From the NCBI RefSeq assembly GCF_023078335.1, contig NZ_CP095550.1, forward strand, positions 4,446,001 to 4,510,000: 64,000 nucleotides of DNA, given 5' to 3'. Shown here one piece after another: positions 1-61,200 of the stretch. The position numbers were made by a program, and so were the translations under genes. A model generated the notes under the pieces. That model saw only the letters and a list, made by a program, of their open reading frames with translations. It ran no database searches and was not told where the DNA came from. Within the stretch, counting starts at the first letter, position 1, and each line of letters starts with the position of its first letter. This stretch comes from Metabacillus endolithicus. GTDB taxonomy: Bacteria > Bacillota > Bacilli > Bacillales > Bacillaceae.

Positions 1-338
1 AGTTTCATTTAAACAAATGTTTTCACTAATCATTTTCACAGGATTTATCACAACAATTGGTCAATTATTGAATCAACTTATTATTTTCGCAATTGGTGGA
101 GATCCGTACGTTATGCTAACAAGTGTGAACAGTCTTATTGGAGCAGATGGAGTTTTAGGAGCAGTTTTAGGCGTATTTGAAGTGTTTCAAATTTGGTATT
201 ATGTTTTGCTGGCACTTGGACTTATGAAAGTTTCAGCTTTCCAAACCGGCAGCATATACAATTGCTATTATTTTCTTTATTTTAGGTCTTATTGTTGCAG
301 CAATTGGAGGAGTTTTTGAAGGGATAGCACAGTTCTAA
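1..338 (+). CDS. yknW: YknW-like Yip1-type membrane protein, C-terminal part, frameshifted
   Basis: Only the 3' end lies in the window; the frame is open from base 2. It encodes hydrophobic segments typical of the Yip1-type protein at the head of the B. subtilis yknWXYZ operon. The frame breaks near 238-240: upstream it reads LGLMKVSAF, and the continuation (AAYTIAIIFF, ending EGIAQF) is in another frame and stops at 336-338. Restoring two T's to the short T run would give an F-S-K-P-A-A-Y junction. The stop overlaps the ATG of the adaptor gene by one base, so the two are coupled. Identity rests mainly on context plus the membrane character. Confidence 0.7.
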
Positions 339-1456
339 TGAAGAAAAAAATTTGGATAGGTATAGGCGTTGCGTGCTTAATCATTATATTAGTTGGAATT
401 AATGTTTTTCGAACAGTAAATAAAGAAAACCTAACAGTTGATACAATAAAAGTTGAAGAACGTGAAATGACCGGGAATGTAATGGTTCCCGGTACACTTT
501 CGCTAAGAAATGAGAGTTTTGTTTACTTATCCCCTGAAAGCGGTAATGTTGCTGAGATTCTTGTAAAAGAAGGAGATAAGGTGGAAGAAGGAACACCTCT
601 ACTTCGGTATGAGAATGAACAGCTATTATTAGAAAAAGAACAAAATGCTTTATCTCTAGAGTCTTCCTACTTACGAATTAATCAGGTGGAAAAACAAATA
701 AATGATTTGGATGAAAAAGAGGAAGATTTGACGAAGCAAGTAGGCAAGGATGAAGCAAAAAAACAAGTTGATGCCGAAAGAGATCAATTAAAAACAGATT
801 TAAAATTAGCTAACCTCGAAGCTAGACAAGTGCTACTTCAAAAAGAAACAATTGAGAAAAAACTGGGAGAACTTGAAGTTGTAAGTGAAATTTCTGGTAC
901 GGTTCTTTCTATTAGTAAAGATGCATCAAAAGGAGTCACTCAAGGAGCTATTTTACACATTGCAAAACCTGATGAGCTTATTGTAAAGGGATCCATTTCT
1001 GAATATGATTCTTTAAAAATTAAGGAGAAGCAACCTGTAACATTGAGATCTGATGTTGTACCAGGAAAGGAATGGGTTGGTGCCGTTAGTAAGGTTAATC
1101 TTCTGCCGGAACAGAATGAAAATGCAATGGGTAATGAAGATAGTGCTGTTCAGTATCCAATTGAAGTTACAATTGATGATAAAGGTATTAAAGCAAAACC
1201 AGGCTTTAAATTAATAATGGATATCCAAACAGAAAAAAGAAAAGCTCTTGCTGTTCCTTTAGAAGCAGTGAAACAGGATGCTGAAGAATATTATGTATTT
1301 GTTGTTAAAGAAGGAAAGGCCATTCGTAAAATAGTAAAAACAGGTGCGGCAAGTGATGAGTATATGGAGATCAAAACAGGGTTAGAAACAGGAGAAAGAG
1401 TTATTGTTAGTCCTTCAAATGAGCTGCAAAATAACATGGAAGTGAATGAGAAATGA
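338..1456 (+). CDS. yknX: YknX-type membrane fusion (HlyD/RND-like) adaptor of an ABC efflux system
   Basis: A 372-residue adaptor protein. One N-terminal membrane segment (about residues 5-24) is followed by a beta-barrel/lipoyl half with an ES-GNVAEILVKEGDKV hairpin sequence, a long lysine- and glutamate-rich coiled coil (about 95-180), the second lipoyl half (SEISGTVLSI) and a C-terminal barrel. This is the usual layout of MacA/YknX adaptors, which bridge a MacB-type permease to its substrate. It starts one base into the yknW stop and overlaps the next ATPase gene by four bases, so it is one operon. In B. subtilis, YknWXYZ protects against the SDP toxin; the same role here is inferred from synteny. 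Confidence 0.9.
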   Translation: MKKKIWIGIGVACLIIILVGINVFRTVNKENLTVDTIKVEEREMTGNVMVPGTLSLRNESFVYLSPESGNVAEILVKEGDKVEEGTPLLRYENEQLLLEKEQNALSLESSYLRINQVEKQINDLDEKEEDLTKQVGKDEAKKQVDAERDQLKTDLKLANLEARQVLLQKETIEKKLGELEVVSEISGTVLSISKDASKGVTQGAILHIAKPDELIVKGSISEYDSLKIKEKQPVTLRSDVVPGKEWVGAVSKVNLLPEQNENAMGNEDSAVQYPIEVTIDDKGIKAKPGFKLIMDIQTEKRKALAVPLEAVKQDAEEYYVFVVKEGKAIRKIVKTGAASDEYMEIKTGLETGERVIVSPSNELQNNMEVNEK

Positions 1457-2139
1457 TTGAGTTAACTTCCATTACTAAGAGCTATAAAGTAGGACAGGAT
1501 ACATTAGATGTTCTTAAAGGAATTAGTCTAACAATTAACGAAGGTGAATTCGTTGCGATTATGGGTCCTTCTGGTTCCGGAAAATCGACACTAATGAACG
1601 TTATTGGATGTTTAGACAACCCTACCTCGGGCACATACTTACTCGGTGATGAGGACATTTCCACTTATAAGGATGAAATGTTAGCTAGGGTACGTAATTT
1701 ATCGATAGGCTTCGTTTTCCAACAATTTCAGCTTCTTCCCCGGCTCACGGCTCTAAAAAATGTAGAGCTTCCGATGGTTTACGCGGGTTATAAGAAAAAA
1801 GAGCGTGAGGAGAGAGCAAAGCAGGCTCTTGAAAAGGTTGGGCTAGCCGAGAGGGTGAATCACTTGCCCAATGAGTTATCTGGAGGACAAAAACAACGTG
1901 TTGCAATCGCGAGGTCAATTGTAAATAACCCTAAAATCATACTGGCGGACGAACCAACTGGTGCACTTGATAGTAAAACAAGCATTACAATAATGGAGCA
2001 ATTCACACAATTAAATTTGGAGGGTACAACAGTTATACTTGTTACCCACGAACAAGAGGTTGCTGATTATGCAAAAAGAATTATTACAGTTAGAGATGGG
2101 ATCATTCTCTCAGATGTAGAGCGGAGGAGAGAAGTATGA
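1453..2139 (+). CDS. yknY: YknY ABC transporter ATPase (MacB/LolD type)
   Basis: A 228-residue ABC ATPase. Walker A GPSGSGKST lies near residue 38, followed by a Q-loop (FVFQQFQLLPRL), signature LSGGQKQR near 140, Walker B ILADEPTGALD and the switch histidine in VTHEQEVA. The GALD D-loop and overall length match the LolD/MacB exporter class, which powers mechanotransmission-type permeases rather than import. It overlaps yknX by ATGA and yknZ by four bases, so the three proteins are translationally coupled and form one transporter. Confidence 0.93.
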   Translation: MIELTSITKSYKVGQDTLDVLKGISLTINEGEFVAIMGPSGSGKSTLMNVIGCLDNPTSGTYLLGDEDISTYKDEMLARVRNLSIGFVFQQFQLLPRLTALKNVELPMVYAGYKKKEREERAKQALEKVGLAERVNHLPNELSGGQKQRVAIARSIVNNPKIILADEPTGALDSKTSITIMEQFTQLNLEGTTVILVTHEQEVADYAKRIITVRDGIILSDVERRREV

Positions 2140-3329
2140 GCTTACTTGAAAATGTAAAGATGGCATTAAGTTCAGTATTAGCTCATAAATTGCGCTCCAT
2201 TTTAACGATGCTCGGAATTATTATAGGTGTGGCATCCGTTATTTTAGTTGTTGCCATCGGTCAAGGTGGAGAGCAATTACTAAAAACTTCAATAACTGGT
2301 CCTGGTAATACGATTGAAGTTTATTATGAACCAAGTGAAGAAGAATTAATGTCAAACCCAAATGCCTATATGAATGCTGCTTTTACTCAGGAAGATGTTA
2401 ATTCATTAAGCAATATACCAGAAGTGAAAAAAGTTGTTGCAGCTTCATCAGAATATTTTTCAACAAGATATCGGGAAGAAACAGCCGATACTAGTGTTAA
2501 TGGTATAAACCAAGCCTATATGGAAGTAAATAACTTGAAGGTTGAATCAGGAAGAAATCTGGTTGAAGCAGATTTTATTGGAGGCACACGTGTAGGGGTT
2601 ATTAGCTCAGAGTTGAAAAAGGAAATGTTTGATAAAATTGAGCCGTTAGGTGAAGTTGTTTGGATTAATGGTCAACCGATTGAAATTATAGGAGTATTAG
2701 AGAAGCCAGAAGGTTTATTCGCATTCGGAGCGATGGAAGTATATGTACCATGGAATACATTTCGGAATTCTTTTGGAAAGAATGAATATAATTCAATTAC
2801 GTTACAGGCTACAAATGCTGACGTAATGAAAGAGGTTGGAGAAAAGGCAACAACTCTTTTAAATACAACTCATAATACAGATAATTCTTATAAAGTGTTT
2901 AATATGGAAGAAATGGCAGAAGGAATTGGTCAAATCACAACCATTATGACGTTAATTATTGGATCAATTGCGGGTATCTCACTTGTAGTCGGGGGAATTG
3001 GCGTGATGAACATCATGCTTGTTTCCGTAACTGAACGAACAAAAGAAATCGGAATAAGAAAGGCGTTAGGCGCAACAAAGCGTCAAATTCTTACTCAATT
3101 TCTAATTGAATCGGTCACCCTTACACTTATAGGTGGAATTATCGGAATTTTACTAGGAGCAATAGCAGCAAATGTTGTATCAATCTTTGCTGGATGGCCA
3201 CCTCTCATTTCTTGGCAGGTTGTTTTAGGAGGGTTAATATTTTCAATGGTTATTGGAATTGTTTTTGGAATGTTACCTGCGAATAAAGCGGCCCGCTTAA
3301 GTCCGATTGAATCTTTAAGATATGAATAA
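2136..3329 (+). CDS. yknZ: YknZ MacB-type ABC permease
   Basis: A 397-residue permease. One transmembrane helix near the N-terminus (LRSILTMLGIIIGVASVILV) precedes a large extracytoplasmic MacB-PCD domain of about 200 residues. Three C-terminal helices follow in the FtsX fold, with the conserved stretch MNIMLVSVTERTKEIGIRKALGA. It is the last gene of the operon and is followed directly by a terminator. With YknY it would form the energised pump, and YknX is the adaptor. Confidence 0.92.
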   Translation: MSLLENVKMALSSVLAHKLRSILTMLGIIIGVASVILVVAIGQGGEQLLKTSITGPGNTIEVYYEPSEEELMSNPNAYMNAAFTQEDVNSLSNIPEVKKVVAASSEYFSTRYREETADTSVNGINQAYMEVNNLKVESGRNLVEADFIGGTRVGVISSELKKEMFDKIEPLGEVVWINGQPIEIIGVLEKPEGLFAFGAMEVYVPWNTFRNSFGKNEYNSITLQATNADVMKEVGEKATTLLNTTHNTDNSYKVFNMEEMAEGIGQITTIMTLIIGSIAGISLVVGGIGVMNIMLVSVTERTKEIGIRKALGATKRQILTQFLIESVTLTLIGGIIGILLGAIAANVVSIFAGWPPLISWQVVLGGLIFSMVIGIVFGMLPANKAARLSPIESLRYE

Positions 3330-3335
3330 CATTTT

Positions 3336-3370
3336 AACCTCCCATTAGTTGTTTATGGGAGGTTTTTTAT
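3336..3370 (+). terminator. Rho-independent terminator of the yknWXYZ operon
   Basis: The arms AACCTCCCA and TGGGAGGTT enclose an 11-base loop and are followed by a T-rich tract. It starts six bases after the yknZ stop. Confidence 0.9.
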
Positions 3371-3539
3371 TATGTTTTTCTCTTGAAATGCAGAGACTTA
3401 TTTAACTAATACAATCGAATTCTTTCGAAAAACAACCAATTTCATTCAAATGAAATGAATGTATCGGTTCTATCGGCTATTATTTTATTAAAATATCATT
3501 CAAAATATGAATGTTTTTGAAATAGTTATATGTTTTTAG

Positions 3540-3589
3540 TGATAAAAAGTGATAGTATTTGATAAAATATGATTGATTTTGGATGAAGA
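3540..3589 (+). promoter_or_regulatory. FruR operator: tandem 10-bp direct repeats
   Basis: TGAT occurs at 3540, 3550, 3560 and 3570, exactly 10 bp apart, with TGATA in the first three. A weaker TGGAT follows at 3580. The repeats cover the -35 element of the fru promoter. Four adjacent 10-bp direct repeats are the established binding requirement of the DeoR-family fructose repressor FruR in Lactococcus lactis, released by fructose 1-phosphate. Spacing, position and the adjacent fruR gene make this assignment strong. Confidence 0.85.
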
Positions 3590-3601: not shown

Positions 3602-3619
3602 GAAAAAGTAAGTAGATTA

Positions 3620-3633: not shown

Positions 3634-3656
3634 AAAAATTAGGAGGTGTTGTTAGT

Positions 3657-10016: not shown

Positions 10017-10290
10017 TCATTTATTTTCTCTTGCCTTAATAGCAGCCTTATAGAAGAGACCAGTTATAAAACAGTGATGATGCTTGCGCCGATATATGAT
10101 GTTGTTAATAATAGGTCCGAAGATCGGTCCAACTCCAGCGATATTTAATAATTGAATTAGAGAATTACGTTTCTTACCCATAGGAAGGTAATCAACATCA
10201 TCTCTACGAGTAATGGGCAGGTGTTTTTCTTGCTTCCTTCACACCAAAAATCTCTTCTACAAATCGAACGTAAGAAAAGGAGTTAAATAT
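10017..10290 (-). pseudogene. cstA: Relic of a CstA-type carbon starvation/peptide transporter
   Basis: Reading the minus strand gives two CstA-like pieces in different frames: RFVEEIFGVKEARKTPAHYS, then DDVDYLPMGKK followed by LIQLLNIAGVGPIFGPI. These are the hallmark N-terminal region of CstA (KTPAHxxxDGVDYxP, LNIAGVGPxFGP). Directly after GPI the frame runs into an unrelated-looking tail (ITGLFYKAAIKARENK) and stops at 10017-10019. The start codon, first helix and about 400 or more central residues are missing. The large deletion plus frameshift make this a genuine pseudogene. Confidence 0.85.
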
Positions 10291-10369: not shown

Positions 10370-10981
10370 GTGGAGGCAATATTGCATGGAATATTATTAG
10401 CATTTGGGTTGATTCTTCCTTTAGGTGCACAAAATGTGTTTGTTTTTAACCAAGGGGCACTACAACCCCGGTTTGTGCAGGCTCTTCCGGTTATTGTTAC
10501 AGCAGCACTTTGTGATACATTTTTAATTATTCTTTCTGTCCTAGGAGTGTCTGTTATTGTTTTTTCATTTGAATGGTTAAAAGTAACTATTTTTTTGATA
10601 GGCATTATGTTTTTGCTTTATATGGGCTGGTCTGTTTGGAGGTCAGATGAACAGGCAGATAAGGAGCATAATTCATCCTCGTTATCTCCTAAAAAACAAG
10701 TTATGTTTGCGATGAGTGTCTCCTTATTAAATCCACATGCAATTTTAGATACAATTGGTGTCATTGGGACAAGCTCACTTGCTTATAATGAAGGAGACAA
10801 GGTGTTATTTACACTAGCGTGTATTATAGTTTCGTGGATTTGGTTTGTTGGTCTCGCACTAACAGGAAGAAGTATAAAGAAAATTGATCAAAATGGAAAA
10901 CATTTGAGAAAGATAAATAAAGTTTCTGCTCTTATTATTTGGGCAGTAGCTGTTTATTTAATCTTTCAATTAATAAGTTAA
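10370..10981 (+). CDS. LysE/ArgO-family amino acid exporter
   Basis: A 203-residue membrane protein of the LysE superfamily, which exports basic or other amino acids. The N-terminal LAFGLILPLGAQNVFVFNQG is the family signature and about six helices can be counted. SLLNPHAILDT in the middle matches the conserved NPxxxLD motif. The start is GTG at 10370, eight bases after TGGAGG. The closest B. subtilis relative by type is YisU. The substrate cannot be told from sequence alone. Confidence 0.88.
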   Translation: MEAILHGILLAFGLILPLGAQNVFVFNQGALQPRFVQALPVIVTAALCDTFLIILSVLGVSVIVFSFEWLKVTIFLIGIMFLLYMGWSVWRSDEQADKEHNSSSLSPKKQVMFAMSVSLLNPHAILDTIGVIGTSSLAYNEGDKVLFTLACIIVSWIWFVGLALTGRSIKKIDQNGKHLRKINKVSALIIWAVAVYLIFQLIS

Positions 10982-10995
10982 AAGGAGATTTGTTA

Positions 10996-11882
10996 ATGAG
11001 GCAAAGTTTTATCAATATTGAAGAAGGTAAAAATACGCATAAGAGATATATTGGTTCTCTATTTGTTGTTTTAGCTTTTATGCTTATTTTAGGAACAGTT
11101 GCATATACAGTAGCACTTATATTAGGTGAGCTTATTCAACCTGGTTTGATAGATTTTGAAACAGGTTTGGTAACAGATCCTTTAGTAGATCTTTACCTAT
11201 TACACTTGCAAAGCATTTTTTAATTCTTGGTCTACTTATTGCAGTTAAAGCTATTTTAAAAAGAAGGTTCATCTCATTAATAACACCGTATAAAAACCTG
11301 AATTGGGGAAAAATATTTTATGGTTATGTAGTTTTATTTATATTATTAATTGTGTTTACACTAATTGATTATGCCTTTTTCCCAAATGATTATTATTTAA
11401 ATGATTTTGATGCTGACAGATTTATGTGGTTATTGGTTGCGGTTATTTTTCTGGTTCCAATTCAAACAACTTCTGAAGAACTTCTTTTCAGAGGGTTTCT
11501 TCTTCAGTGGGGAGCAAAATTTACGAAAAATCCGATATTGCTTGCTATTATAGTAGGCGGGATTTTTGGTAGTCTTCACTTTTTTAACCCGGAAATGGAG
11601 TATGGAGCGTTTTGGGTAGCGCTAGATTATTTAGCAATGGGGTTTATTTGGACGTATATTTCAATTAAAACAAATAGTTCAGAGTTTTCTATTGGTGCAC
11701 ATGCGGCAAATAATATGTTTCTCTGCTTATTTTTAACTATGGATGATACAGTATACGGAGACATCCCTTCCGTGTTTGTAACAACAAATGTCAATGCGAT
11801 GCTTTCAACACTTACTACGATTATTACGGGTGTACTATTTACAATCATTGTATTTCGGAAACAAAAGAAAGAAATAATGTAG
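10996..11882 (+). CDS. CPBP-family intramembrane metalloprotease, frameshifted
   Basis: A multi-span membrane protease of the CPBP/Abi family. The catalytic motifs are present: EELLFRGF (EExxxR), GSLHFF (FxxxH-type) and HAANN. The start is ATG at 10996 after AAAGGAG. The frame breaks at the T run 11192-11194: the upstream frame stops at 11223, while the continuation (LPITLAKHFLILGL) is in another frame. Adding one T restores a single product of about 295 residues, normal for the family. Artefactual breakage is the likely reading. Confidence 0.82.
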
Positions 11883-11929: not shown

Positions 11930-11990
11930 GTGAACCAAAGTTGATTGTCGTTCCTTTAAAATATTTTCTATTAATGTTAGGTGTATTGTT

Positions 11991-12350
11991 TCAGGATTTT
12001 TCTCGAAAATGTAGGATAACACTTATAACTAGTATTGTTAGATAGATGGAAATAAAAATAACAAAAGGCATACTGCCGTTCTTAAATAAAAATTCTTGAA
12101 GTTGCTTTGAAAAAAGAAAAAGTAGCCAAGGACCAGCAGATACAAATACAGGAATCATTCCTGTTCCATTTTTTTCCTTTAAAATTCGATAATACATTTT
12201 CTCTAATGTTGAGGTATCGATAGTAAGATAGAAATGTTTAATTTGTTCTATTTCTTTTAGTTCTTTTAACTTATGAAGCGGTTGTCCATTCTCGACTGTT
12301 TTTTTGAATTTCAAATAAAGTTTATGTGCATCCCCGCGTGTTGAAATCAT
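11991..12350 (-). CDS. Membrane protein of unknown function (119 aa)
   Basis: A charged cytoplasmic N-terminal half (HKLYLKFKKTVENG, LKELKEIEQIKHFY, TLEKMYYRILKEK) is followed by two membrane helices (about residues 65-82 and 92-112) and a basic end. RBS GGAGGT stands eight bases before the ATG. I do not recognise the family. It is monocistronic, and its coding pattern looks real. Confidence 0.65.
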   Translation of the reverse strand: MISTRGDAHKLYLKFKKTVENGQPLHKLKELKEIEQIKHFYLTIDTSTLEKMYYRILKEKNGTGMIPVFVSAGPWLLFLFSKQLQEFLFKNGSMPFVIFISIYLTILVISVILHFREKS

Positions 12351-20865: not shown

Positions 20866-21361
20866 AACCTAAAAAACCTCTTTCCTTTATTAACGTTATT
20901 TATAGAATTTGTTGAATATTGTTGGTTTTTGAAATTTGTTATCAATATGAAAAGAGATCGTCACCTTTTTGTCATATAAGTGTTTAGATGATTTTTAAAT
21001 ATAATATCTTTATTGAATAAAAGCTTTAAAGTGAAAATGAATAAATCTAAGGTTGAAAATTTGCTAATTTGGATGTGTGTTTGATGAGTGGACATTTTTT
21101 TTGGTAGAAAATCTTACAAAAACCTTTATTTATAAGGGGTTTTGCTCTGTGTGCAGTAGGGGTAAAAATGCCTATTTTCATTTTATGTATTGGGAAAATG
21201 GACTTATTTTAATTTTCAGAAAATAGAATTTTCGGACTATTTATTATATTCATATAAAGATTATAATAGTTATGTAGTTATAATAATTTTTAGTAGAAAA
21301 GTATTTTGAAGTTACGAAGTTCCATCTTTCAATGCTTTCTATTAAAAGAAGGGGGATTAAA
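20866..21361. other. Intergenic region between divergent mreBH and the inhA-like gene
   Basis: About 500 A+T-rich bases that must hold both promoters. I see no open frame with an RBS, no clear operator and only a weak hairpin near 21120-21142. A long leader for the secreted protease is possible. Confidence 0.5.
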
Positions 21362-23769
21362 GTGAGAAAGTTAAGAAGAGGAATTGAAGCTCGAAATAAG
21401 CAGTTGAAAAAGGCGCTAAAGGTTACTGCTAGTTCGGTAATTATGGGAGGACTATTGTTCAGTACATACTTGCCGGTAGCGTCAAATGTTCAAGCTGCTA
21501 GTCCTGTACTAGAGTCAGCACCAATTGATTACAATATTGTTCCTGAAGAGAGATTAGCAAAAGCATTGAAAGATCAAGGGGTTATTTCTAAAAATGCTTC
21601 TGCTGCAGAAGTAAAGAAAAAGGTTAAAGAATATATTGAGAAAAAAGAGGGCGAAAAAGCCGGTAAAGTGTCTCATAAAACTTCTCATGAAGAAGTGATG
21701 GATAAAAAAACGAAAGACTTCCTTACAAAACAAAAGGACAAGCTAGCAAAACAACTAAATAAAGGTCATGGAAACTTCAAAAAAGGTAAACCTAATGGTG
21801 CAGTGAAAGTGGATGCTGCTAAACAAGCACCATATAACGGAGAAGTTCGCTCAGATAAGGTCTTGGTATTATTAACAGAATTTGCAGATTTCAAGCATAA
21901 CAATGTTGTTCAAGAAGATGGTTACATGTATGCGGATGACTTTAATAAAGAGCATTATGAAAAGTTAATGTTTGGTGATGAAGACTTTACCTTGTTTAAT
22001 GGAGAGAAAGTTAAAACCTTTAAACAATATTATGAAGAGCAATCAGGTGGTAGTTACACAGTTGATGGAACAGTTTCAGAATGGTTAACTGTACCAGGTA
22101 CTGCAAAAGAATATGGTGATGACAATCCTGAAGGTGGGCATGATAACCTTAATCCTAAAGGACCTAGAGATCTTGTTAAGGATGCCTTAAATGCAGCAGT
22201 TGCTTCTGGTCTTGATTTAGCCGAATACGATGAATTTGATTTATATGATCTAGATGGTGATGGAAATCAAAATGAGCCAGATGGACTAGTAGATCACTTG
22301 ATGATTATTCACGCAGGTACTGGTCAGGAAGCTGGTGGTGGTACTTTAGGTGATGATGCGATCTGGTCACATAGATGGACGTTAAACGGAGTGTACCCGG
22401 TTGCGGGAACACAGGCTGAAGTTGGTTATTGGGGTGGTCAAATGGCAGCATTCGACTACACAATCCAACCTGAAGACGGTGCAGTTGGTGTATTTGCACA
22501 TGAATTCGGACATGATTTAGGTCTTCCAGATGAATACGACACTCAATACACTGGTCAAGGTGAGCCGGTTGCTTCTTGGTCAATTATGAGTGGGGAAGTT
22601 GGAATGGAAACATCGCCGGAACTGCTCCAACAAGCTTCTCACCTCAAAATAAGGAATTCTTCCAAAATGTTATGGGAGGAAACTGGGCGAAGATTATGGA
22701 GGTTGATTATGCAGATATTACAAAGAACGGCATTGCGACTTTCCTAGATCAAAGTGTAACGAAATCAAATAACCCTGGTATTGTAAAAGTGAACTTACCA
22801 GCTAAAAATGTAAAAGGGTTTTTACCAGCTGAGAATGGTGGGGAAAACTATTACTACAGCCAAAAAGGCGATGATCTTCATACAGCATTAGAAACACCAC
22901 TATTTGATTTAACAGGTGCAACTTCAGCAGAATTTAATGCATTGCAATGGTTTGAAGTTGAATTTGACTATGATTATGTATATGTAAAGGCTGTAACAGA
23001 GGATGGCACAGAAGTTGAGCTAGATGTTATTGGTGATGACAATACTGCTGATGGTATGGAAACAACAAATGGTCAATGGGTTGAAAAAACGTATGACTTA
23101 AGCGATTATGCTGGTAAAAAAGTAAAACTAGTATTTGAATATGTAACCGATGGCGGTTTAGCGCCGAATGGGTTTGCGATTGATAATATTTCAGTAACAG
23201 CTGACGGTAACGAAATCTTTACAGATAATGCTGAAGGTGAAGCAAAAGTTTCATTAGATGGTTTCATTGTTTCTAATGGCTATTCTCAAGCTAATAATCA
23301 TTACTACTTAGAGTGGAGAAACTATGCTGGTTCTGATAAAGCATTAGCATACTCTCGTGGTGCTAAGTATAATACTGGTTTAGTTGTTTGGTATGCAGAT
23401 GAAAGCTATACGGATAACTGGGTTGGAGTACATCCGGGAGAAGGATTCCTTGGAGTAGTTGATTCACATCCAGAGGCTGTATTTGGTTTATTAAATGGCC
23501 AAAAAACGGTTACTCAAAGTACTCGCTACCAAGTTGCGGATGCGGCATTCTCTTTAGATAAAACACCAGGATTCTTCGTTGATTCTCCTACACGTGGAGC
23601 ATATGAGTTCCTAAGCTTTAAAGGAAATACTAAGTTTGATGATTCAGAAACATATTACAATACTGCGATTAAAGATGCAGGTCGAATTGTTCCTAACCAT
23701 GGCTTAAAATTTGAGGTTATTGGTGAAGCAAAAGATAATTCTGCCGGTGCAGTTTGGATTCATAAGTAA
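21362..23769 (+). CDS. InhA-like secreted M6 metalloprotease, frameshifted
   Basis: A large exported zinc protease related to immune inhibitor A of the B. cereus group. GTG start at 21362, seven bases after AGAAGGGGG. A long signal peptide ends near VQAAS (about residue 38), followed by a Lys/Glu-rich propeptide. The zinc motif [14 protein letters not shown] starts at His380, and SWSIMSGGSW follows. The C-terminal half has beta-rich and MAM-like repeats ([18 protein letters not shown]). The frame breaks in the G run 22592-22595; one extra G restores MSGGSWNG and a product of about 802 residues. In the B. cereus group InhA proteases degrade host and own proteins; the role here is unknown. Confidence 0.88.
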
Positions 23770-28332: not shown

Positions 28333-29999
28333 TTAAACTTCCATAATAATTGGTAAAATCATTGGGCGACGCTTTGTTTTTTCGTATAAGAATGGAGCGA
28401 GTGTGTCAGTGATTTCATTTTTAATTTCGGACCATTGACTTGTACGACGTTCCATAATTTTGTTCAGATGCTTGGAGATTAGTGATTGAGCATCATTAAT
28501 TAAATCACCAGATTCACGCATGTAGACAAAACCTCTAGAGATAATATCTGGACCTGCTGCGATTTTGAAGTCTTTCATGTTGATGCTTACAACGACTATA
28601 ACAAGACCTTCTTCTGAAAGAATTCGGCGGTCACGGAGGACAATGTTACCGATATCGCCAATACCACTTCCATCAATATAAACATTACCTGAAGGGATTT
28701 TCCCAGCAATTCCAACTTCTTTATCTCCTATTGCTAGAACCTCTCCATTATCCATGATAAAACAGTTCTCTTCCTCAACACCACAGTCTACTGCATGTCT
28801 AGCATGCATCTTCTGCATACGGAATTCACCATGTATTGGCATAAAGTATTTTGGCTTCATTAATCTAAGCATAAGTTTTTGTTCTTCTTGACCACCGTGA
28901 CCTGAAGTATGAATGTCGTTAAGTGGTCCGTGGATTACCTCTGCTCCTGCACGGAACAGTTGATTAATCGTTTTGCTAACGCTAAGTGTATTTCCTGGTA
29001 TTGGAGAAGATGAGAAGACAACATTGTCCCCTGGTATAATTTGAATTTGTCTATGAGTGCCGTTTGCGATACGCGATAGAGCTGCCATTGGTTCACCTTG
29101 AGATCCTGTACAAAGAATTGTCACACGATGAGCTGGCATACGATTAATTTCATGTGCATCTACAAAAGTATCTTTAGGACAACTAATATATCCTAAATCT
29201 TGTCCAATTTGTATGGCTGTTCCATACTTCGCCCAAACACAGCAACTTTACGTCCGTGTGCAACCGCAGCTTCAACTACTTGTTGGAGGCGGTGTATATT
29301 TGATGCAAATGTTGCAAAGATAATGCGACCATCTACCTTACGGAAAATTTCGTGTATACTGTCACCGACACGTCTCTCTGACATCGTAAAGGTAGGAATC
29401 TCACTGTTTGTACTGTCAGAAAGTAAACACAGAACTCCATACCGACCAATCTCGGCCATCTTTGTTAAGTTTGCAGGTTCACCTACAGGTGTAAAATCGA
29501 ATTTAAAGTCACCAGTATGTACGATGTTTCCAGGTGGTGTTTTAACGACAATACCATATGAATCAGGAATACTATGAGTTGTTCTGAAAAATGTCACAGA
29601 CGTTTTTCTGAACTTAATAATATCATCTTCCTGAATTTCGATTAATTTAGTTTGTCGAAGAAGTCCGTGCTCTTCAAGTTTGTTTCTGAGTAAACCTAAA
29701 GCAAGCTTACCCCCATAAATAGGAATGTTTACTTGACGAAGTAAATATGGAATTCCACCAATGTGGTCTTCATGTCCGTGCGTAATAAATAATCCCTTTA
29801 TTTTATCTTCGTTTTTGGATAAATAAGTGTAGTCAGGAATGACATAATCAATTCCAAGTAACTCATCCTCTGGAAATTTTATTCCAGCATCAATCAGGAT
29901 AATTTCATCTTGAAATTGTACTCCGTACGTGTTTTTTCCGATTTCACCAAGTCCGCCTAATGCAAAGACAGCAACTTGATCATTTTTTACAAATTTCAT
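28333..29999 (-). CDS. rnjA: RnjA, ribonuclease J1, frameshifted
   Basis: A metallo-beta-lactamase/beta-CASP exo- and endoribonuclease, central to mRNA decay and RNA maturation in Bacillus. The catalytic motif HGHEDH is at residues 74-79 and the beta-CASP part begins near [10 protein letters not shown]. The N-terminal frame stops after [11 protein letters not shown]; the continuation ([15 protein letters not shown]) is in another frame. One extra A in the coding strand (T run 29220-29221 on +) restores [16 protein letters not shown] and a product of 555 residues, the B. subtilis length. Such a core gene is unlikely to be truly broken. rpoY lies five bases upstream. Confidence 0.93.
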
Positions 30000-40020: not shown

Positions 40021-40345
40021 ATATTTTCTTGTTGCAATGATTTTAATAATGAGAAAACCATCAGGATCATATTCACTGCAAAGGAAAGTGATCTAATACT
40101 GCAAACGGAGCTCCAATACTACGTTTAAGTTACTTAAATATTTAATTCCTTTAAATAAATAAGAAACACCTCCGCTTATTTGAGCAGTGCCCCAAAAGCC
40201 TAAAGAAGTGGCTACCCCAAAAACAGTCGCAAATACAGCAATAAAATTAATTAGAATCCCAGTTTTGCCATCAACTTTATCATATTACTCATTATTCCAT
40301 TTTGTTCTTTTCTAAATCGCAAGCCTATACGAAAATCATGATGGA
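40008..40345 (-). pseudogene. Relic of a BCCT-family betaine/choline/carnitine transporter
   Basis: The minus strand reads, in one frame, [18 protein letters not shown] followed by [11 protein letters not shown], the most conserved region of BCCT carriers (OpuD/BetT type). After a short gap another frame gives FAVNMILMVFSLLKSLQQEN and IVKK before a stop at 40008-40010, a typical BCCT C-terminal helix. The N-terminal half and the helices between are missing and the frame is broken several times. This is genuine decay of an osmoprotectant transporter gene. Confidence 0.8.
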
Positions 40346-40529
40346 TAAAGGAAATTTCAATGATATCCAATAACGTCTAGTAAGCCTTGAATATCTCTTT
40401 ATTTACTTTGCTAAAAATATAGACTATTTCATAGTTTTTCTATATTTCTGACACTTGTTTCTGTTTTAAATCATAGATTATCACTGTATTTTTAAAATAC
40501 GAATGTTGATTGGAGGTTTGATATGTTCC

Positions 40530-42255
40530 ATGAATTCTTATGAAAATTTAGAGGAATATTGGGAGGAACAGTTTGATAAAGGTGTAGAGTGTTATTACAA
40601 GGCAATTAAGGGAGATAAAAAAGCAGGTATTGAAGCACATCGTCTTTTTGAGGAACTTTTAAGAGAAGATCCCAATAATACGGAATTAATGGCTTATTTT
40701 GGATCAGTAAAGGCTTTGCGAGCAAGAGACACATTTGATCTGAGAGAGAAAGGTAAATACGCAAATGAAGGTCTAAAGTTGCTTGATGTAGCCGTATTAA
40801 AAGATCCTTCTAATGCATTAATTCGAACATTACGAGGAAATGTTGCCAATAACTTGCCTGAAAGTCGATTTCATAGAACGGAAACAGCAATTGAGGATTT
40901 TGAACGTATTATAAACATGTATGAACGCAATTCTTATGGAATTCCACAAACACTATGTATTGAAACAATGAAGAGTTTAATTACTGCGTATGAACGTTTA
41001 GGTAAGATAGAAGAAGCCACGGAGGTAGCAAATAAATTATTAGATATAGATTCTTCATATCAAATACCTAAGTTTAATAGCAAATTAACATCTTTACCAG
41101 TAGCTAATATAAATGACCCTATTAATGATGAAATTCATTCTTTATATACTATGGCAATTTGTAGTGATGAGGTCTCTTTACTTAAGGTGATGAAAAAAGT
41201 CTCACGATTAATGGATAAAGATTCTAATAATCCAATTTTACAAGCTTACAATGTTCATTTGAACTCAATTAAAAATAGTCATAGTTTTGCCGGTATGGTT
41301 GAACTATTCACAAATGCTTATAAGACTGCAAATCTATTAGATAAGCTTGTAAGTGAATATCCTACAACTTATAAAATACGATATGTGAGGGCGATGCAAA
41401 GTTATCGATTGCCAGAGTTTTTCTTTTTTCGATCTTCAACTGCTGCACGTGATTTTCAATATTTATCAGCTCAGTATGAAAAAGATCCTACTATTTTTTC
41501 TTTGGCTATCTATGAAGATATCCTACTTAGGCTTGGAGAATGCTTTGTTCGATTAGATATGGTAGAGGAAGCAGTAAAACAATGGCATAAACTTGTTGAA
41601 TTTTCATCAAATAAAGAGATTGTTACCAAAGCCAACGAATTAATTAACGTCTTTTCATTTGAAGAGCTAATACTTGATGAAATAATGAAAAAACCAAAGG
41701 AACAATTATATGAATCTGCATTAAAACTTCATGATATTGGTGTGAACGGTAATGAAAAGGCAGCAAAACAATCACTGGCACTATGGGAATTCATTCAAAA
41801 AGAATATAGCAGCTGCCCGGTAGCAAAGTTTTATTATTCCGCGTCGTTAACCTTACTGGGTCGATTCTTCTCGGATCCTTATGAGGTCTTTAGCCAATCT
41901 ATAAAAGGAATTTTTAAAGAAACTAAATACATCTATTCCGATCAATGATCCAAGGTATATTCAACTTCTTTTACATCGAGCCTATATACAATTTAGCCTG
42001 CCAGATACTTTCTTTCGTTGTAGTGATCAGATAATTAAGGATTTTGAAGCAGTTATTAAAATGTATCAAAGTAGCACAGATATTGATATAACCCAAAGTC
42101 AATATTTAAAGGTATTAGCTGATCTTGGAACTGTTTATGAGAAAAAACATTTTGTTCATAAAGCCAAAGAAATTTGGTCTGAACTTGCTAAGGAAGATGA
42201 AAGTTTATTTTATTCGGAGTTTTTGACTGAAAAAGGAATACGTATTGAGGATTAA
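40530..42255 (+). CDS. Protein of three TPR-like modules, frameshifted
   Basis: A soluble, helical, charged protein of about 575 residues after repair. It is built of three copies of a roughly 165-residue module with a signature LPExFFxR, then TAxxDF. Examples are NLPESRFHRTETAIEDF in module 1, RLPEFFFFRSSTAARDF in module 2, and SLPDTFFRCSDQIIKDF in module 3. Each module ends with a TPR-like pair (LITAYERLGKIEEA). The frame breaks at the T run 41911-41915 and resumes in the next frame; two more T's repair it. The ATG at 40530 has GGAGG 14 bases away. Likely a scaffold or binding protein; partner unknown. Confidence 0.72.
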
Positions 42256-45199: not shown

Positions 45200-46155
45200 A
45201 TGAATTGGAGAACAAGAGTAACTGATGTTTTGGGGATTCAATATCCTATTATCCAGGGGGGTTAGCGTACTTAGCCTATTCAGATTTAGCTGCAGCTGTT
45301 TCAAATGCTGGTGGGTTAGGGCAAATTACAGCTATGTCACTTGGAACAACTGATGCACTCCGTAATGAAATTAAAAAGATACGTAATAAAACATCAAAAC
45401 CGTTTGGCGTGAATTTTGCAATCGGCCAACACGGAAAAGGGTATGAAGAGCTAGTACAAGTAGCGATTGAGGAAGATGTTCCAGTGATCTCTATGACAGG
45501 TGGAAATCCCAGTCCTATTTTTGATTTACTTAAAGGCACGGAAATAAAAAAACTGGTTTTAGTAGCAGCAAAACGGCAGGCAATCAAAGCAGAAGAGTTG
45601 GGTGCAGATGCTGTAATGGTAGTAGGACAAGAAGGCGGGGGACATCTTGGAAGAACAGATGTAGGTACTATGGTGTTAGTTCCTCAAGTAGTCGACGCTG
45701 TCAAAATACCTGTTATTGCTTCAGGTGGGATTGCTGATGGTAGAGGTTTAATGGCTGCTTTAAGCTTAGGAGCTGAAGGAATTGAAATGGGCACTAGATT
45801 TATTGCTACGAAAGAATGCATTCATGCACACCCTGTTTATAAGAAAGCATTAATTGATGGAGATGAAAACAGTACAGTTGTTATTAAAAAGTCACTTGGA
45901 GCACCTGCTCGGGCAATTGCTAATGAATGGACGGACAGAATCTTAGAAATTGAAAAGAATTCTGGTGGGTATGAAGAATTAAGAACTTATATTAGTGGGG
46001 GAGCTAACAAAAGATACATATATGATGGTAAGATAAATGATGGGTTTGCATGGGCAGGGCAAGTAATGGGGTTAATATCAGACATACCTTCTGTACAAGA
46101 GCTGGTTAGTCGAATTATTAAAGAGGCGGAAACAATCCGTAAAGAATGGACATAA
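45200..46155 (+). CDS. Nitronate monooxygenase-family FMN enzyme, frameshifted
   Basis: A TIM-barrel flavoprotein of the nitronate monooxygenase/enoyl reductase FabK-like family, about 318 residues. It starts [20 protein letters not shown]. Then the frame breaks in the G run 45256-45261; one extra G restores [23 protein letters not shown]. Later landmarks are [40 protein letters not shown] and [11 protein letters not shown], the FMN phosphate site. RBS AAAGGAGGGG. The substrate is uncertain. Confidence 0.85.
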
Positions 46156-49134: not shown

Positions 49135-49322
49135 TTATATTAAGCCTTTTTCTCTCATTCTTTTTTTCATAATAAAACCAGTAGCCATTACAGCATTTAG
49201 ACCAATGATGGCCAAAATAATTCCTAGGATGCTTCGTTCACCAACGGCCACTCCAATTCCAATCATAAAAGAGTAATTGCTAATACAGCTAATACAAGAA
49301 AAATCCATTTACCTTGTTTCAT
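49135..49322 (-). CDS. ylaF: YlaF-like small membrane protein, frameshifted
   Basis: Two membrane helices with a basic end (FIMKKRMREKGLI). From ATG at 49322 the frame (KQGKWIFLVLAVLA) breaks; the continuation YSFMIGIGVAVGERSI, LGIILAII is one frame over. One extra A (T pair 49277-49278 on +) restores 62 residues, the length of B. subtilis YlaF, which also has an ERSI motif and a KKKMRE end. It is divergent from typA. Confidence 0.72.
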
Positions 49323-49543
49323 TAAAAATGACAGCTCCCAACCATGGCTTTGCCTAATTTTTGATTACTTCTTATAGTTTACTTAAAATCATTCGGCTTT
49401 TCTAGATTGTTTATGGTATAATATCGAAGGTGATTTTGAAATAATGAAAGTATTAACTCAGAATACTACAGGAATGAGCATTTTAAAACCATTTAGATAG
49501 CCTCTCATTCTTTGGTTATTATATATTTTTAGGAGATGAAATT

Positions 49544-51945: not shown

Positions 51946-52373
51946 AGTTGATTTAGAAAAAAATCGTAGCGGAATTGGTAGGATTAAGGCGTATAGTAAG
52001 TGTCCAAGTGTCCACCAAAGTATAGCTGTAAAGTCAAGTAACTCAGGTGTTTCTTTTATGGAAACTATTGTTAAAGGAAAATATAAAAAAACAGTTGGTA
52101 CAGTTAAAAAACATGAGAGAAGAACTTGCTGCTTCACCTTTACTAGCTTAAGAAAATGAGTTAAAAAAACAAAGATTATACCGATCATAACAGATACTGC
52201 TAGATGAACAATAAATTCTAAGATTTCAGGAATATAACCAATATAAATAAAATCAATATTTAGCAATAGTGTGTAAACCTTAAGATTTGTTATTGTTTCG
52301 ACTAATTTTAAAAACAAGTTCCCAATACTGTTCCGCTTATAAGTCCGGTAACGATCCCTTGAAAAATTCTCAC
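51937..52373 (-). CDS. Membrane protein coupled to ylaI, unknown function, frameshifted
   Basis: A GTG at 52373 overlaps the ylaI stop by four bases (GTGA) and reads RIFQGIVTGLISGTVLG. The frame is then lost; the next frame gives LFLKLVETITNLKVYTLLL and three more membrane helices. One extra A (T pair 52319-52320 on +) restores about 145 residues with four helices. The apparent longer frame running up into ylaI is an artefact. The family is not recognised. Confidence 0.65.
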
Positions 52374-52570
52374 CAGGTGTCTTCAGTCTTTTTATCTTGA
52401 TAAAGCCGAAACTTACCGGTTGCAATTCGCTCATTTGTTTTTTCTGTAATTCTGTTTTGACAAGGATTACACATATATGTATGAATTGGACGGTTTCTAA
52501 GTCGTTTTGCAACTAATGTTTCATCGTCAATGTTTTCCACTGTATCACAAATAACACACTTAACTCTCAT
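52370..52570 (-). CDS. ylaI: YlaI-like zinc-ribbon protein (DUF2197)
   Basis: A 66-residue protein with two CxxC pairs (CVICDT near the N-terminus and CNPCQNRI near residue 34), a typical small zinc ribbon, followed by a basic helix. RBS AAGAGGTG. It matches YlaI in size and location; function unknown. Confidence 0.88.
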   Translation of the reverse strand: MRVKCVICDTVENIDDETLVAKRLRNRPIHTYMCNPCQNRITEKTNERIATGKFRLYQDKKTEDTW

Positions 52571-52726
52571 TTGGCACCTCTTTATTATATTAATATCTTT
52601 TACTAATTCTATTGGTCATATTATAACATAAAGCCTTTAAAAGGATTGAGAAGGAATGTTTTTAGTTGGAACCTTTTAGAAAAAAAGGTATGATATTTGT
52701 ATATAAAATGGAAAGGGAGGATTCAG

Positions 52727-53185
52727 ATGGCAAATAAAGTTGAACCAGTGTTAATTGTTCCCTTATTTAATGCTTTGCAACAAGAGCGGTATGTAACTTT
52801 GGCAACAATTGATAATGAAACGGGTTCTCCAAACATAAGTGCCATTTCTTGGGTTTTTGCTCCGGAAACTAATCGAATATTATTAGCAGTAGATGAACGC
52901 TCACGAATCATCGATAATATAAAGAAACATCCTGCAGTTGTTTTAAATGTAATCGCTAACGAATCTACATACTCCATTAACGGAAATGCACATGTTAAAG
53001 GGGAAAGGTTGGAAGAAGTTCCGCTAAAACTTGCTTTAATTGAACTATCTATAATCGAAGTTCGTGATGTTATGTTCTATGGTTCAAAAATTTCAGCTGA
53101 ACCAAAATATGAAAAAACATATGATGAAAAAGCGGCATCTAAGTTAGATAAACAAGTATTAGATGCGTTAAAAAAACATCATTGA
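52727..53185 (+). CDS. Pyridoxamine 5'-phosphate oxidase-like flavin-binding protein
   Basis: A 152-residue split-barrel protein of the PNPOx-like superfamily: ERYVTLATIDNETGSPNIS, SWVFAPETNRILLAVD, and NIKKHPAVVLNVI, the usual FMN-binding strand order. ATG at 52727 follows GGGAGGA; an earlier in-frame start at 52697 lies before the RBS. Substrate not predictable. Confidence 0.82.
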   Translation: MANKVEPVLIVPLFNALQQERYVTLATIDNETGSPNISAISWVFAPETNRILLAVDERSRIIDNIKKHPAVVLNVIANESTYSINGNAHVKGERLEEVPLKLALIELSIIEVRDVMFYGSKISAEPKYEKTYDEKAASKLDKQVLDALKKHH

Positions 53186-58017: not shown

Positions 58018-58025
58018 AATTCACT

Positions 58026-58071
58026 TAAATACCCATCAGTCACAAATGTCTGTCTGACGGGTATTTTCTTT
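58026..58071 (+). terminator. Terminator of ftsW
   Basis: AAATACCCATCAG and CTGACGGGTATTT with one mismatch, followed by TCTTT. Confidence 0.85.
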
Positions 58072-58204
58072 ATACTCTGAAGATAATTACCTACTGTGTT
58101 AGTCTAAAAGGTCAAATAGTCAGTGATTTTCTGTATAACATTTTTCTTTAATGTGTTATACTAATTGCAAACTAATTGTTTGTTTTAGGAGGGGAAATGA
58201 TTTA

Positions 58205-61200
58205 ATGGGTAAAGTGAATAAGCTTTTAGTTGCAAACAGAGGGGAAATAGCAATTCGGGTTTTCCGGGCATGTACAGAGTTGAATATTAGGACAGTAGCG
58301 ATTTATTCGAAAGAAGATACAGGATCATATCATCGCTATAAAGCTGATGAAGCTTATTTAGTAGGAGAAGGAAAGAAACCAATTGATGCCTATCTTGATA
58401 TCGAAGGAATCATTGAGATCGCAAAAAATAATCAGGTTGATGCAATACATCCAGGTTATGGTTTTTTATCTGAGAATATTCATTTTGCTAGAAGATGCGA
58501 GGAAGAAGGAATCATTTTTGTTGGTCCTAAATCTGAGCATTTAGATATGTTTGGAGATAAGGTAAAGGCAAGAAAACAAGCAGAACTAGCCAATATACCT
58601 GTTATACCGGGGAGTGATGGTCCTGTAGCAAACCTTGATGAAGTGATTGAATTTGGAGATACATACGATTATCCTTTTATGATTAAGGCCTCACTTGGAG
58701 GCGGTGGAAGAGGTATGAGAATTGTAAGAAGTAAAGAAAGCTTACAAGAATCATATGAACGAGCAAAATCTGAAGCGAAAGCAGCTTTTGGGAACGATGA
58801 GGTTTATGTAGAAAAATTTATTGAAAATCCTAAGCATATTGAAGTTCAAATATTTGGAGATCATGACGGGAAAACTGTTCACCTTTATGAAAGAGATTGT
58901 TCTGTCCAGAGACGTCATCAAAAGGTTGTTGAGGTAGCACCTAGTGTTTCCTTATCAGAGGACCTTCGTAGTAGAATTTGCGATGATGCTGTAAAGCTTA
59001 TGGATAATGTGAAATACTTAAATGCAGGAACAGTTGAATTTTTAGTTTCAGGAGATCACTATTATTTCATTGAAGTAAATCCACGTGTTCAGGTTGAACA
59101 TACGATAACCGAAATGATAACAGGAATTGATATTGTTCAAACTCAAATTCTAATAGCTCAGGGTCATAATCTGGCGAGTAAAGAGATTGGCATTCAATCT
59201 CAAGATCAAATTAAAGTAAATGGCTATGCAATTCAATCAAGGGTAACGACAGAAGATCCTTTAAATAACTTTATGCCTGATACCGGTAAAATTATGGCAT
59301 ACCGATCTGGTGGCGGCTTTGGTGTTCGTTTAGATGCAGGTAATGGGTTTCAAGGGGCTGTTATTACTCCTCACTATGATTCATTACTAGTAAAGCTTTC
59401 GACTTGGGCTTTAACATTTGAACAAGCTGCATCTAAAATGGTCAGAAATTTAAGGGAATTTAGAATAAGAGGAATTAAAACAAATATTCCTTTTTTAGAA
59501 AATGTAGTAAAGCATGAGGATTTCTTAAGTGGAAAATATAATACATCCTTTATCGACTCATCACCGGAGTTATTTGTTTTTCCAAAAAGGAAAGACAGGG
59601 GAACAAAAATGCTTTCATACATTGGAACTGTTACTGTAAATGGATTCCCTGGAATAGATAAACAAAAGAAGCCTGTGTTTGAGAAACCTGTTGTTCCAAA
59701 AGTAAAGTACTCTGAACAAAAATTAAATGGAACGAAACAAATTTTAGACAAACATGGAACTTCAGGACTTATTAAGTGGATAAAGGATCAAAATCAAGTG
59801 CTGTTAACAGATACAACATTTAGAGATGGACACCAATCCTTACTTGCAACACGAGTGAGAACAAATGACTTAAAGAATATAGCTGAACCAACTTCGCAAT
59901 TGTTACCTCATTTATTTTCTTTGGAAATGTGGGGCGGGGCAACTTTTGATGTTTCTTACCGCTTTTTAAAAGAAGATCCTTGGGATCGTTTATTAACAAT
60001 TCGTGATAAGGTGCCAAATGTATTATTACAGATGCTACTGCGAGCATCAAATGCAGTTGGGTATAAAAATTATCCTGATAATGTCATAAAGGAATTTGTT
60101 GAAAAATCAGCATATGCGGGTATTGACGTTTTTAGAATTTTTGACAGTTTGAACTGGGTTAAAGGAATGACATTGGCAATTGATGAGGTAGGTAAATCTG
60201 GGAAGATTGCAGAAGCTGCTATTTGCTATACAGGAGATATATTGGATTCAAGCAGACCTAAATATAATCTGGAATATTATAAAAATATGGCAAAAGAGCT
60301 TGAGCAAGCTGGTGCGCATATTCTAGCGATTAAGGATATGGCAGGTTTACTTAAACCTAGAGCAGCTTATGAACTCATATCTACCCTTAAAGATGCAGTT
60401 GATCTGCCAATCCACCTTCATACCCATGATACAAGTGGTAATGGAATTTTTACCTATTCAAAAGCAATTGAGGCTGGGGTAGATATAGTTGATGTAGCGG
60501 TAAGTTCAATGGCAGGCTTACCTCACAACCGAGTGCGAATTCCCTTTATTATGCTTTAGAAGGATATGAGCGACAACCAAATATAGATATACAGTCATTA
60601 GAACAACTTTCACAATATTGGGAGAACGTTAGGAAATATTATGTTAACTTTGAGAGTGGTATGAACGCACCACATTCAGAAATTTATATGCATGAAATGC
60701 CAGGAGGTCAATATAGTAATCTTCAGCAGCAAGCAAAGGCTGTTGGACTAGGTGATGAATGGGATAAAGTAAAAGGGATGTACCGCAGAGTAAATGATCT
60801 ATTCGGTGACATAGTCAAAGTTACCCCTTCGTCTAAGGTTGTTGGCGACATGGCACTATTTATGGTTCAAAATAAACTAAATGAAGATGATATTTTTGAA
60901 AAGGGAGAAACTCTGGATTTTCCAGATTCAGTTATTGAATTGTTTGAGGGGTATTTAGGGCAACCGCATGGAGGGTTTCCTAAAGAATTACAACGAATCA
61001 TTTTAAAAGGTCGCACACCTATAACCGAGCGACCTGGTGAAAAACTTGAACCAGTAAATTTTCAAGCTATGAAAGAAGAGTTATTTCATAGTTTGGGAAG
61101 ACCTGTAACTAATTTTGAACTAATTGCTAATGCTCTTTACCCTAAAGTCTTTTCTGAATATATTAAAACATGTGATATGTATGGTGATATTTCTGTCCTT

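What the first reader, a model, noticed from the sequence alone, without database searches (positions are those of the whole stretch)
238..60521. Nine conserved genes broken at homopolymers, all consistent with base undercalling
yknW (238-240), the CPBP protease (11192-11194), inhA-like (22592-22595), rnjA (29220-29221), the TPR-module gene (41911-41915), the nitronate monooxygenase-like gene (45256-45261), ylaF (49277-49278), the ylaI partner (52319-52320) and pycA (60520) each switch frame at a short run of one base. Adding one base (seven cases) or two (two cases) restores the family sequence, and rnjA and ylaF then reach the B. subtilis lengths exactly. All nine repairs go in the same direction and core genes are hit, so a sequencing artefact is far likelier than decay. 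Any annotation of this window should treat them as intact.
Basis: partly seen in the sequence, partly recalled or inferred. Interest (0 to 1): 0.75.

Follow-up and report, generated by a model that had tools for sequence, protein, structure and literature searches.

The report
Broken genes from modified-base misreads
The broken genes in this stretch are sequencing errors rather than real gene decay, and most of them seem to come not from dropped letters in repeats but from misreading one five-letter DNA word (AGCCC), probably because the bacterium chemically marks it.

Summary
All nine breaks are in the deposited sequence; a tenth was missed. A 97.8%-identical genome (G002) shows these genes uninterrupted. 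The artefact verdict holds: rpoC, polC and ileS, found once each, are broken too.

The proposed mechanism mostly fails. Against G002, 6 of 9 breaks are net losses and 3 of 9 net gains; "all in the same direction" came from reading frames modulo 3. Only 2 of 9 lie in runs of 6 or more; 5 of 9, and the tenth, sit on AGCCC/GGGCT.

Over 400 kb, 58 of 291 AGCCC sites carry an indel (19.9%), against 0-2.4% for all 15 one-mismatch neighbours. Of 79 breaks on this genome's side, 44 are at the motif (25 gains, 19 losses), 9 in long runs (all losses), 26 neither. rRNA copies within the genome disagree at the same motif.

Best reading: systematic miscalling, as known from nanopore data, at a modified AGCCC. 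The likely writer is a tandem LlaJI-type cytosine-5 methyltransferase pair, found in 1 of 21 genus genomes searched, this one. That link is inferred.

The parts
2..319 (+). YknW-family membrane protein, cut by the window edge; frame switch near its 3' end, on AGCCC in G002
   Evidence: NF052650 match; switch against three outgroups; motif in G002 and not in the window
10939..11882 (+). CPBP (Rce1-like) protease in two frames; switch in a 7-base run of G002
   Evidence: PF02517; G002 ORF of 314 aa splits; four outgroups; run length
11930..12350 (-). Tenth altered gene, not in the finding; 3' end out of frame, on AGCCC in G002
   Evidence: G002 ORF of 141 aa splits; alignment; motif; no NCBIfam name
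21332..23769 (+). M6-family metalloprotease (the finding's inhA-like gene) in two frames; neither the motif nor a long run at the switch; not read through
   Evidence: Pieces searched apart: TIGR03296 and choice_anch_J; G002 ORF of 812 aa splits; four outgroups
28333..29999 (-). rnjA (RNase J1) in two frames; neither the motif nor a long run at the switch
   Evidence: NF047419 on both pieces; 20 of 20 relatives have an open frame of 556-571 aa there; twin 555 aa
40503..42255 (+). TPR-repeat gene in two frames; net gain against G002, on GGGCT
   Evidence: Pfam TPR matches; G002 ORF of 582 aa splits; one outgroup, G004; motif and length
45200..46155 (+). Nitronate monooxygenase / FabK-like gene in two frames; switch in a 7-base run of G002
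   Evidence: PF03060; G002 ORF of 318 aa splits; three outgroups; run length
49138..49325 (-).
   Evidence: Two outgroups; twin ORF of 61 aa; motif and length
52256..52512 (-).
   Evidence: G002 ORF of 85 aa splits; alignments; motif and length
58151..61641 (+). pycA (pyruvate carboxylase) in two frames, on GGGCT
   Evidence: TIGR01235 on the twin; G002 ORF of 1164 aa splits; one outgroup, G008; motif

Best explanation
The breaks are sequencing and consensus errors in the deposited assembly. The largest identified cause is systematic miscalling of the pentamer 5'-AGCCC-3' / 5'-GGGCT-3', which the sequencer appears to have met as modified DNA: recurrent wrong strings are written there, often of changed length, as gains about as often as losses. 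A smaller cause is shortening of long single-base runs. Shown here: the motif and its exactness, the two-way indels, broken single-copy essential genes, and rRNA copies that disagree at the motif. Inferred: that the platform was nanopore, that the mark is cytosine-5 methylation on both strands, and that the writer is the tandem LlaJI-type methyltransferase pair at G000:C1:1835-4131.
For: AGCCC is the top pentamer of 512 for indels: 58 of 291 sites, 1.6 expected. All 15 one-mismatch neighbours have indel rates of 0-2.4%. 32 net losses and 35 net gains around altered motifs, with recurrent strings: AGCC 20 times, AGTCC 7, AGTACC 5, AGTTTC 4. 44 of 79 breaks on the G000 side at the motif, against 76 of 9113 sampled coding positions near it. 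rpoC, ileS and polC found once each and broken. rRNA: 13 motif events in 90 site-copies in G000, 0 in 72 in G002. Substitutions are highest at C3, G2 and C4 of the motif, a span that holds cytosines of both strands. m5C methyltransferase pair in G000, none in G002, 1 of 21 in the genus search. Precedent: pentamer-specific nanopore errors in Listeria tied to a methyltransferase system (PMC10687267, passages).
Against: 26 of 79 breaks, the rnjA and M6 ones among that kind, are at neither the motif nor a run of 6 or more. The share of altered sites differs by region: 16 of 34, 24 of 72, 67 of 112, and 10 of 73 in rRNA, unexplained. Platform and methylation state were not observed. In the Listeria precedent errors were mainly mismatches and indels were not the source, unlike here. 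The pair's specificity is unmeasured, one of its two genes is itself split in this sequence, and other methylases are present.
Confidence: 0.85

Rival explanations
1. Plain homopolymer undercalling: the basecaller drops bases from single-base runs, and this alone breaks the genes.
For: G/C runs of 7: 7 in G002 and 0 in G000; G/C runs of 6: 4 of 19 shorter, none longer; A/T runs of 8: 6 of 37 shorter, none longer. All 9 breaks in runs of 6 or more are losses, and 20 of the 26 unclassified breaks are losses.
Against: 3 of 9 window breaks are net gains, and only 2 of 9 lie in runs of 6 or more. 25 of the 44 motif breaks are gains. A/T runs up to 7 vary in both directions. AGCCC outranks every run among pentamers.
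Confidence: 0.08
2. Real mutations: true gene decay, a mutator strain, or mutation at a methylated site.
For: Some real loss exists: the window lacks about 1.1 kb of a CstA-type gene that G002 keeps. Deamination of a methylated cytosine would give C-to-T changes, and AGTCC is the second commonest string.
Against: rpoC, polC and ileS are found once each and broken. The same odd multi-base strings recur at unrelated sites. rRNA copies within one genome differ at the motif.
Confidence: 0.03
3. The motif errors are miscalls at a modified AGCCC, but the writer is another enzyme or another chemistry (for example m4C or phosphorothioate), not the LlaJI-type pair.
For: No methylation data. A type I system and another N6-methylase match over its cut-off are present. 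Phosphorothioation genes were not searched.
Against: PF01555 (N4/N6, type III class) gave only sub-cut-off matches in both genomes. Type I systems recognise split sequences (established knowledge), while flanks matter little here. Of the four families searched, PF00145 is the one present in G000 and absent from G002.
Confidence: 0.35

Closest known systems
Modification-mediated nanopore errors (Listeria; Chiou et al. 2023, PMC10687267, passages seen)
   Same: Excess errors at one pentamer (GCAGC or GCTGG there), tied to a strain's methyltransferase system and absent from sister strains.
   Different: Motif is AGCCC here. There mismatches dominated and indels were not the source; here 58 of 117 altered sites carry an indel.
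Methylation-induced nanopore errors (Klebsiella and other species; PMC11610573, passages seen)
   Same: Strain-specific motif; systematic errors in the consensus.
   Different: There two-base ambiguity (A/G or C/T) at RACG/CGTY; here longer wrong strings with length change.
Nanopore homopolymer errors (Homopolish, PMC8011154; listing and start of abstract only)
   Same: Shortening of long runs, the minor component here.
   Different: Does not explain gains or the AGCCC sites.
LlaJI restriction-modification (PMC1459862, passages seen)
   Same: Two tandem m5C methyltransferases; relatives of the pair lie beside LlaJI-type endonuclease genes in 3 of 4 genomes; asymmetric pentamer.
   Different: LlaJI reads GACGC/GCGTC. 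Here no LlaJI endonuclease is found in the genome, and the specificity is inferred from errors only.

Membership tests
Modification-mediated systematic basecalling error | Errors concentrate on one exact short motif | tested here: met
   58 of 291 AGCCC sites with indel; 15 of 15 one-mismatch neighbours at 0-2.4%
Modification-mediated systematic basecalling error | Errors hit genes and RNAs that must be intact | tested here: met
   rpoC, ileS, polC; 16S and 23S copies
Modification-mediated systematic basecalling error | The motif carries a modified base | not testable with these tools
   No raw signal or methylation data
Modification-mediated systematic basecalling error | Errors vanish when DNA is amplified before sequencing | not testable with these tools
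   Needs the strain
Homopolymer undercalling | Breaks lie in long single-base runs | tested here: not met
   2 of 9 window breaks; 9 of 79 over 400 kb
Homopolymer undercalling | Changes are losses | tested here: not met
   3 of 9 are gains; 31 of 79 are gains
LlaJI-type restriction-modification | Two adjacent m5C methyltransferase genes | tested here: met
   PF00145 on M1 and on both pieces of M2; tandem in the 4 other genomes
LlaJI-type restriction-modification | McrB-like and LlaJI endonuclease genes | tested here: not met
   PF09563 has no match in G000; R proteins of relatives find nothing convincing in the 32 kb examined; an IS1182 transposase gene stands beside the pair
LlaJI-type restriction-modification | Methylates an asymmetric pentamer on both strands | tested here: inconclusive
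   The error motif is an asymmetric pentamer and the errors span cytosines of both strands; methylation not measured

The most novel reading that the evidence does not exclude
The error map is an accidental methylome: this strain carries an orphaned LlaJI-type methyltransferase pair, its restriction genes lost, with a specificity AG(m5C)CC / GGG(m5C)T that I did not find in print in the searches made, and its footprint can be read from a finished assembly without raw signal.
Probability: 0.5. Interest if true: 0.5.

Novelty: new member of a known kind. Interest (0 to 1): 0.42.

Why it matters
This assembly stands for its species in a reference set and is listed as 99.7% complete, yet 62 of 283 sampled twin ORFs of 150 aa or more show a frame-changing difference (6 of 42, 13 of 87, 43 of 154). 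Gene counts, pseudogene claims and even 16S comparisons from it would be affected. Polishing aimed at homopolymers would leave most of it, because the largest class follows a motif and over half of that class are insertions. More usefully, comparing a finished assembly with a near twin, k-mer by k-mer, exposes such a motif and points to a methyltransferase to test.

Tried and rejected
PF01555 methylases as the writer: only sub-cut-off matches, in both genomes. PF02384 and PF07669 matches: present in both genomes. A longer motif: flanks differ little. A second motif: with AGCCC masked, single-base runs and their edges are what stands out. G002 at fault: outgroups side with G002 in the window, except for one gene, intact in the window at 52697-53185, where four outgroups show G002 broken. 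Reverse counts: G000 ORFs of 150 aa or more with a frame-changing difference number 7 of 47, 7 of 87 and 25 of 165, but these include fragments of G000's own broken genes, so assigns sides instead. I first took two odd remnants in the window for transposases; a check showed CstA and BCCT transporter families, and the report was changed. AGCCC in print: two searches gave 2 papers and 14 papers of which 10 were listed; I opened four and saw primers or adapters, and one passage on GRGCYC, which includes GAGCCC. REBASE was not available. Searches (type IIS with two methyltransferases; indel errors) were listings; one paper was opened at passages.
Full report
WHAT WAS COMPARED. The window is G000:C1:4446001-4510000 of a 5.30-Mb, two-contig genome listed as 99.71% complete with 4.48% contamination. 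Of the 34 named loci, the nearest in DNA are an uncultured Metabacillus (78.0% over 14.5 kb) and Bacillus sp. SA1-12 (77.6%); the next is Priestia koreensis at 72.6%. The unnamed same-genus genomes G003, G004, G005 and G008 stand at about 77%, so the genus is probably Metabacillus (inference). A near twin, G002, is 97.8% identical over the window, which makes the test sharp.

THE NINE BREAKS. G002 ORFs split across two frames in the window for the CPBP protease, the M6 protease, rnjA, the TPR gene, the NMO gene, the ylaI partner and pycA. Outgroup ORFs see switches at yknW, CPBP, M6, rnjA, TPR, NMO, ylaF and pycA, TPR and pycA by one outgroup each. For rnjA, 20 of 20 relatives have an open frame of 556-571 aa over the N-terminal piece, against 275 in the window. 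With support from at least two genomes the neighbourhood has 7 switches in the window, 2 in G002, 1 in G003 and 0 in G004, G005 and G008; with one-genome support only, 5, 2, 5, 0, 4 and 3. One of the window's 7 and one of G002's 2 lie in a shared remnant of a BCCT-type transporter gene. A tenth gene (about 11,930-12,350, minus strand) is out of frame at its 3' end.

DIRECTION. Against G002 the net length change is a loss at six of the nine and a gain at three: TPR, ylaF and the ylaI partner. The outgroup alignments printed for eight of the nine genes agree in net length, with one exception: the ylaI partner against G008, which differs by one base within the printed stretch. A gain of two and a loss of one restore the same frame, so frames alone could not tell them apart.

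THE MOTIF. Five of the nine breaks, and the tenth, have AGCCC or GGGCT in G002 at the break and not in the window: yknW, TPR, ylaF, ylaI partner, pycA. CPBP and NMO lie in runs of 7. rnjA and M6 have neither. In the window alone 8 of 34 motif sites carry an indel, against about 0.2 expected from the mean rate. Two further blocks, about 139 kb around the rRNA and ribosomal-protein region and about 197 kb downstream of the window, bring the aligned total to 400 kb. There AGCCC is the top pentamer of 512, with 58 indels against 1.6 expected (log10 p about -70) and 117 of 291 sites altered: 16 of 34 in the window, 34 of 145 and 67 of 112 in the other two blocks. All 15 one-mismatch neighbours have indel rates of 0 to 2.4%. 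Flanking bases change the altered share only moderately, most values lying between 0.3 and 0.5. In reverse, AGCCC of G000 is altered at 23 of 198 sites in G002, 8 with a gap; some of these may mirror the same events.

THE ERROR STRINGS. Around altered motifs there were 32 net losses and 35 net gains, with 67 of 134 neighbourhoods unchanged in length (flanking substitutions included). The same wrong strings recur at unrelated places: AGCC 20 times, AGTCC 7, AGTACC 5, AGTTTC 4, AAATTTC 2. Some altered sites must be ordinary divergence: the neighbours are altered at 10-20%. Substitution rates are highest at C3 (0.162), G2 (0.113) and C4 (0.100), then C5 (0.058), and deletions at C3 (0.055) and C5 (0.031); in the controls AGCCT and TGCCC no position of the pentamer exceeds 0.043. 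G2 pairs with the only cytosine of GGGCT, so the affected span includes cytosines of both strands. Gap placement within CCC is arbitrary, so the deletion peak is soft.

HOW MUCH EACH PROCESS EXPLAINS. Frame-changing differences in ORFs of 100 aa or more were assigned to the genome with the shorter ORF. G000 side: 79, of which 44 at the motif (25 gains, 19 losses), 9 in runs of 6 or more (all losses) and 26 neither (20 losses, 6 gains). G002 side: 14, of which 2, 2 and 10. Six more were unclear (3, 2, 1) and are left out. Of sampled coding positions 76 of 9113 (0.8%) lie near the motif. With the motif masked, single-base runs and their edges are what remains enriched in G000. G/C runs of 7: 7 in G002, 0 in G000; A/T runs of 8: 6 of 37 shorter and none longer; A/T runs up to 7 vary both ways. 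If the three blocks are typical, the genome holds about a thousand such breaks (extrapolation from 79 in 400 kb).

ARTEFACT, NOT DECAY. G002 ORFs of 150 aa or more with a frame-changing difference number 6 of 42, 13 of 87 and 43 of 154 in the three blocks. I identified 8 of these 62, picked by size and place: rpoC, polC (its first 610 aa), ileS, topA, smc, proS, priA and guaB. At the thresholds used, rpoC, ileS and the polC piece each match one place in the genome, and there they are split or carry internal stops. A cell is not known to live without these (established knowledge). Independently of G002's divergence, the five rRNA operons of the sampled block disagree with one another at the motif: 10 events in 75 23S site-copies (partial 23S) and 3 in 15 16S site-copies, against 0 in 60 and 0 in 12 in G002. 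Away from the motif many differences are shared between copies, as real variation would be, though some occur in one copy only, one of them a two-base gap in a G000 16S copy. Real loss does occur too: the window lacks about 1.1 kb of a CstA-type gene kept by G002.

THE LIKELY WRITER. G000 has cytosine-5 methyltransferase genes at C1:1835-4131, one intact (350 aa) and one itself split; G002 has none. A close relative of M1 occurs in 1 of 21 genus genomes, this one, and in 5 of 397 sampled genomes of the order, own genome included. In all four others two methyltransferases stand in tandem. In three of the four an MTaX1/AAA protein and a LlaJI endonuclease follow, in one of them after an Mrr-like gene; in the fourth the next large ORF is a transposase. 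LlaJI is described as two 5mC methyltransferases plus two restriction subunits recognising asymmetric GACGC/GCGTC (PMC1459862, passages), and the HgaI-type MhoVI system likewise has two 5mC enzymes, one per strand (PMC12376442, passages). In G000 an IS1182 transposase gene stands beside the pair, and no LlaJI endonuclease is found anywhere in the genome, though a broken gene could score low. The fit is good (asymmetric pentamer, cytosines in both strands, pair present where the errors are), but the specificity was not measured and a single genome cannot show correlation.

PLACE AMONG KNOWN THINGS. Pentamer-specific errors from native nanopore reads, tied to a strain's methyltransferase system, were reported in Listeria (PMC10687267, passages), and methylation-induced errors in Klebsiella and other species (PMC11610573, passages). 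The present case is another motif with a high share of indels. Two literature searches for AGCCC and four papers opened from the second showed no such recognition site; ten papers of 14 were listed and REBASE was not available.

VERDICT. The nine genes should not be called pseudogenes. The largest identified reason is misread AGCCC; long-run shortening is second, and about a third of the breaks (26 of 79) have no assigned cause beyond a bias to loss. Polishing aimed at homopolymers alone would leave most of these errors in place.

Noticed in passing
L120 1835-4131 and 434-1663 (G000:C1): Tandem m5C methyltransferases without their restriction genes, beside an IS1182 transposase gene; relatives in 3 of 4 other genomes have LlaJI-type endonuclease genes there.
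   Followed up: partly
L120 5723-10924: 1733-aa helicase with an MTES_1575 nuclease domain, distantly like anti-phage ProA/Hhe and far under their cut-offs, divergent from the methyltransferases.
   Followed up: no
L120 12540-14666: 708-aa protein matching type IV methyl-directed restriction models, some 8 kb from the methyltransferases: such an enzyme beside an m5C writer would need a different target.
   Followed up: no
L122 1177-7208: Type I restriction-modification genes; the hsdR-like part lies in two ORFs, perhaps another sequencing break.
   Followed up: no
window 52697-53185: Gene intact in the window but broken in G002 according to four outgroups: the twin has errors or decay of its own.
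   Followed up: partly
window about 10038-10290: Remnant of a CstA-type gene; G002 keeps a 480-aa ORF and the window lacks about 1.1 kb of it, so this looks like real loss.
   Followed up: partly
window about 40084-40367: Remnant of a BCCT-type transporter gene, degraded in both the window and G002.
   Followed up: partly
G000:C1:4256406-4257176: An RNase J paralogue with an open frame of 402 aa against 584 in G002, possibly a further break.
   Followed up: no
L061-L070 against L081-L090 and the window: The share of altered AGCCC sites varies: 10 of 73 in rRNA, 24 of 72 elsewhere in that block, 16 of 34 in the window, 67 of 112 downstream. Read depth near the origin could explain it; not tested.
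   Followed up: no
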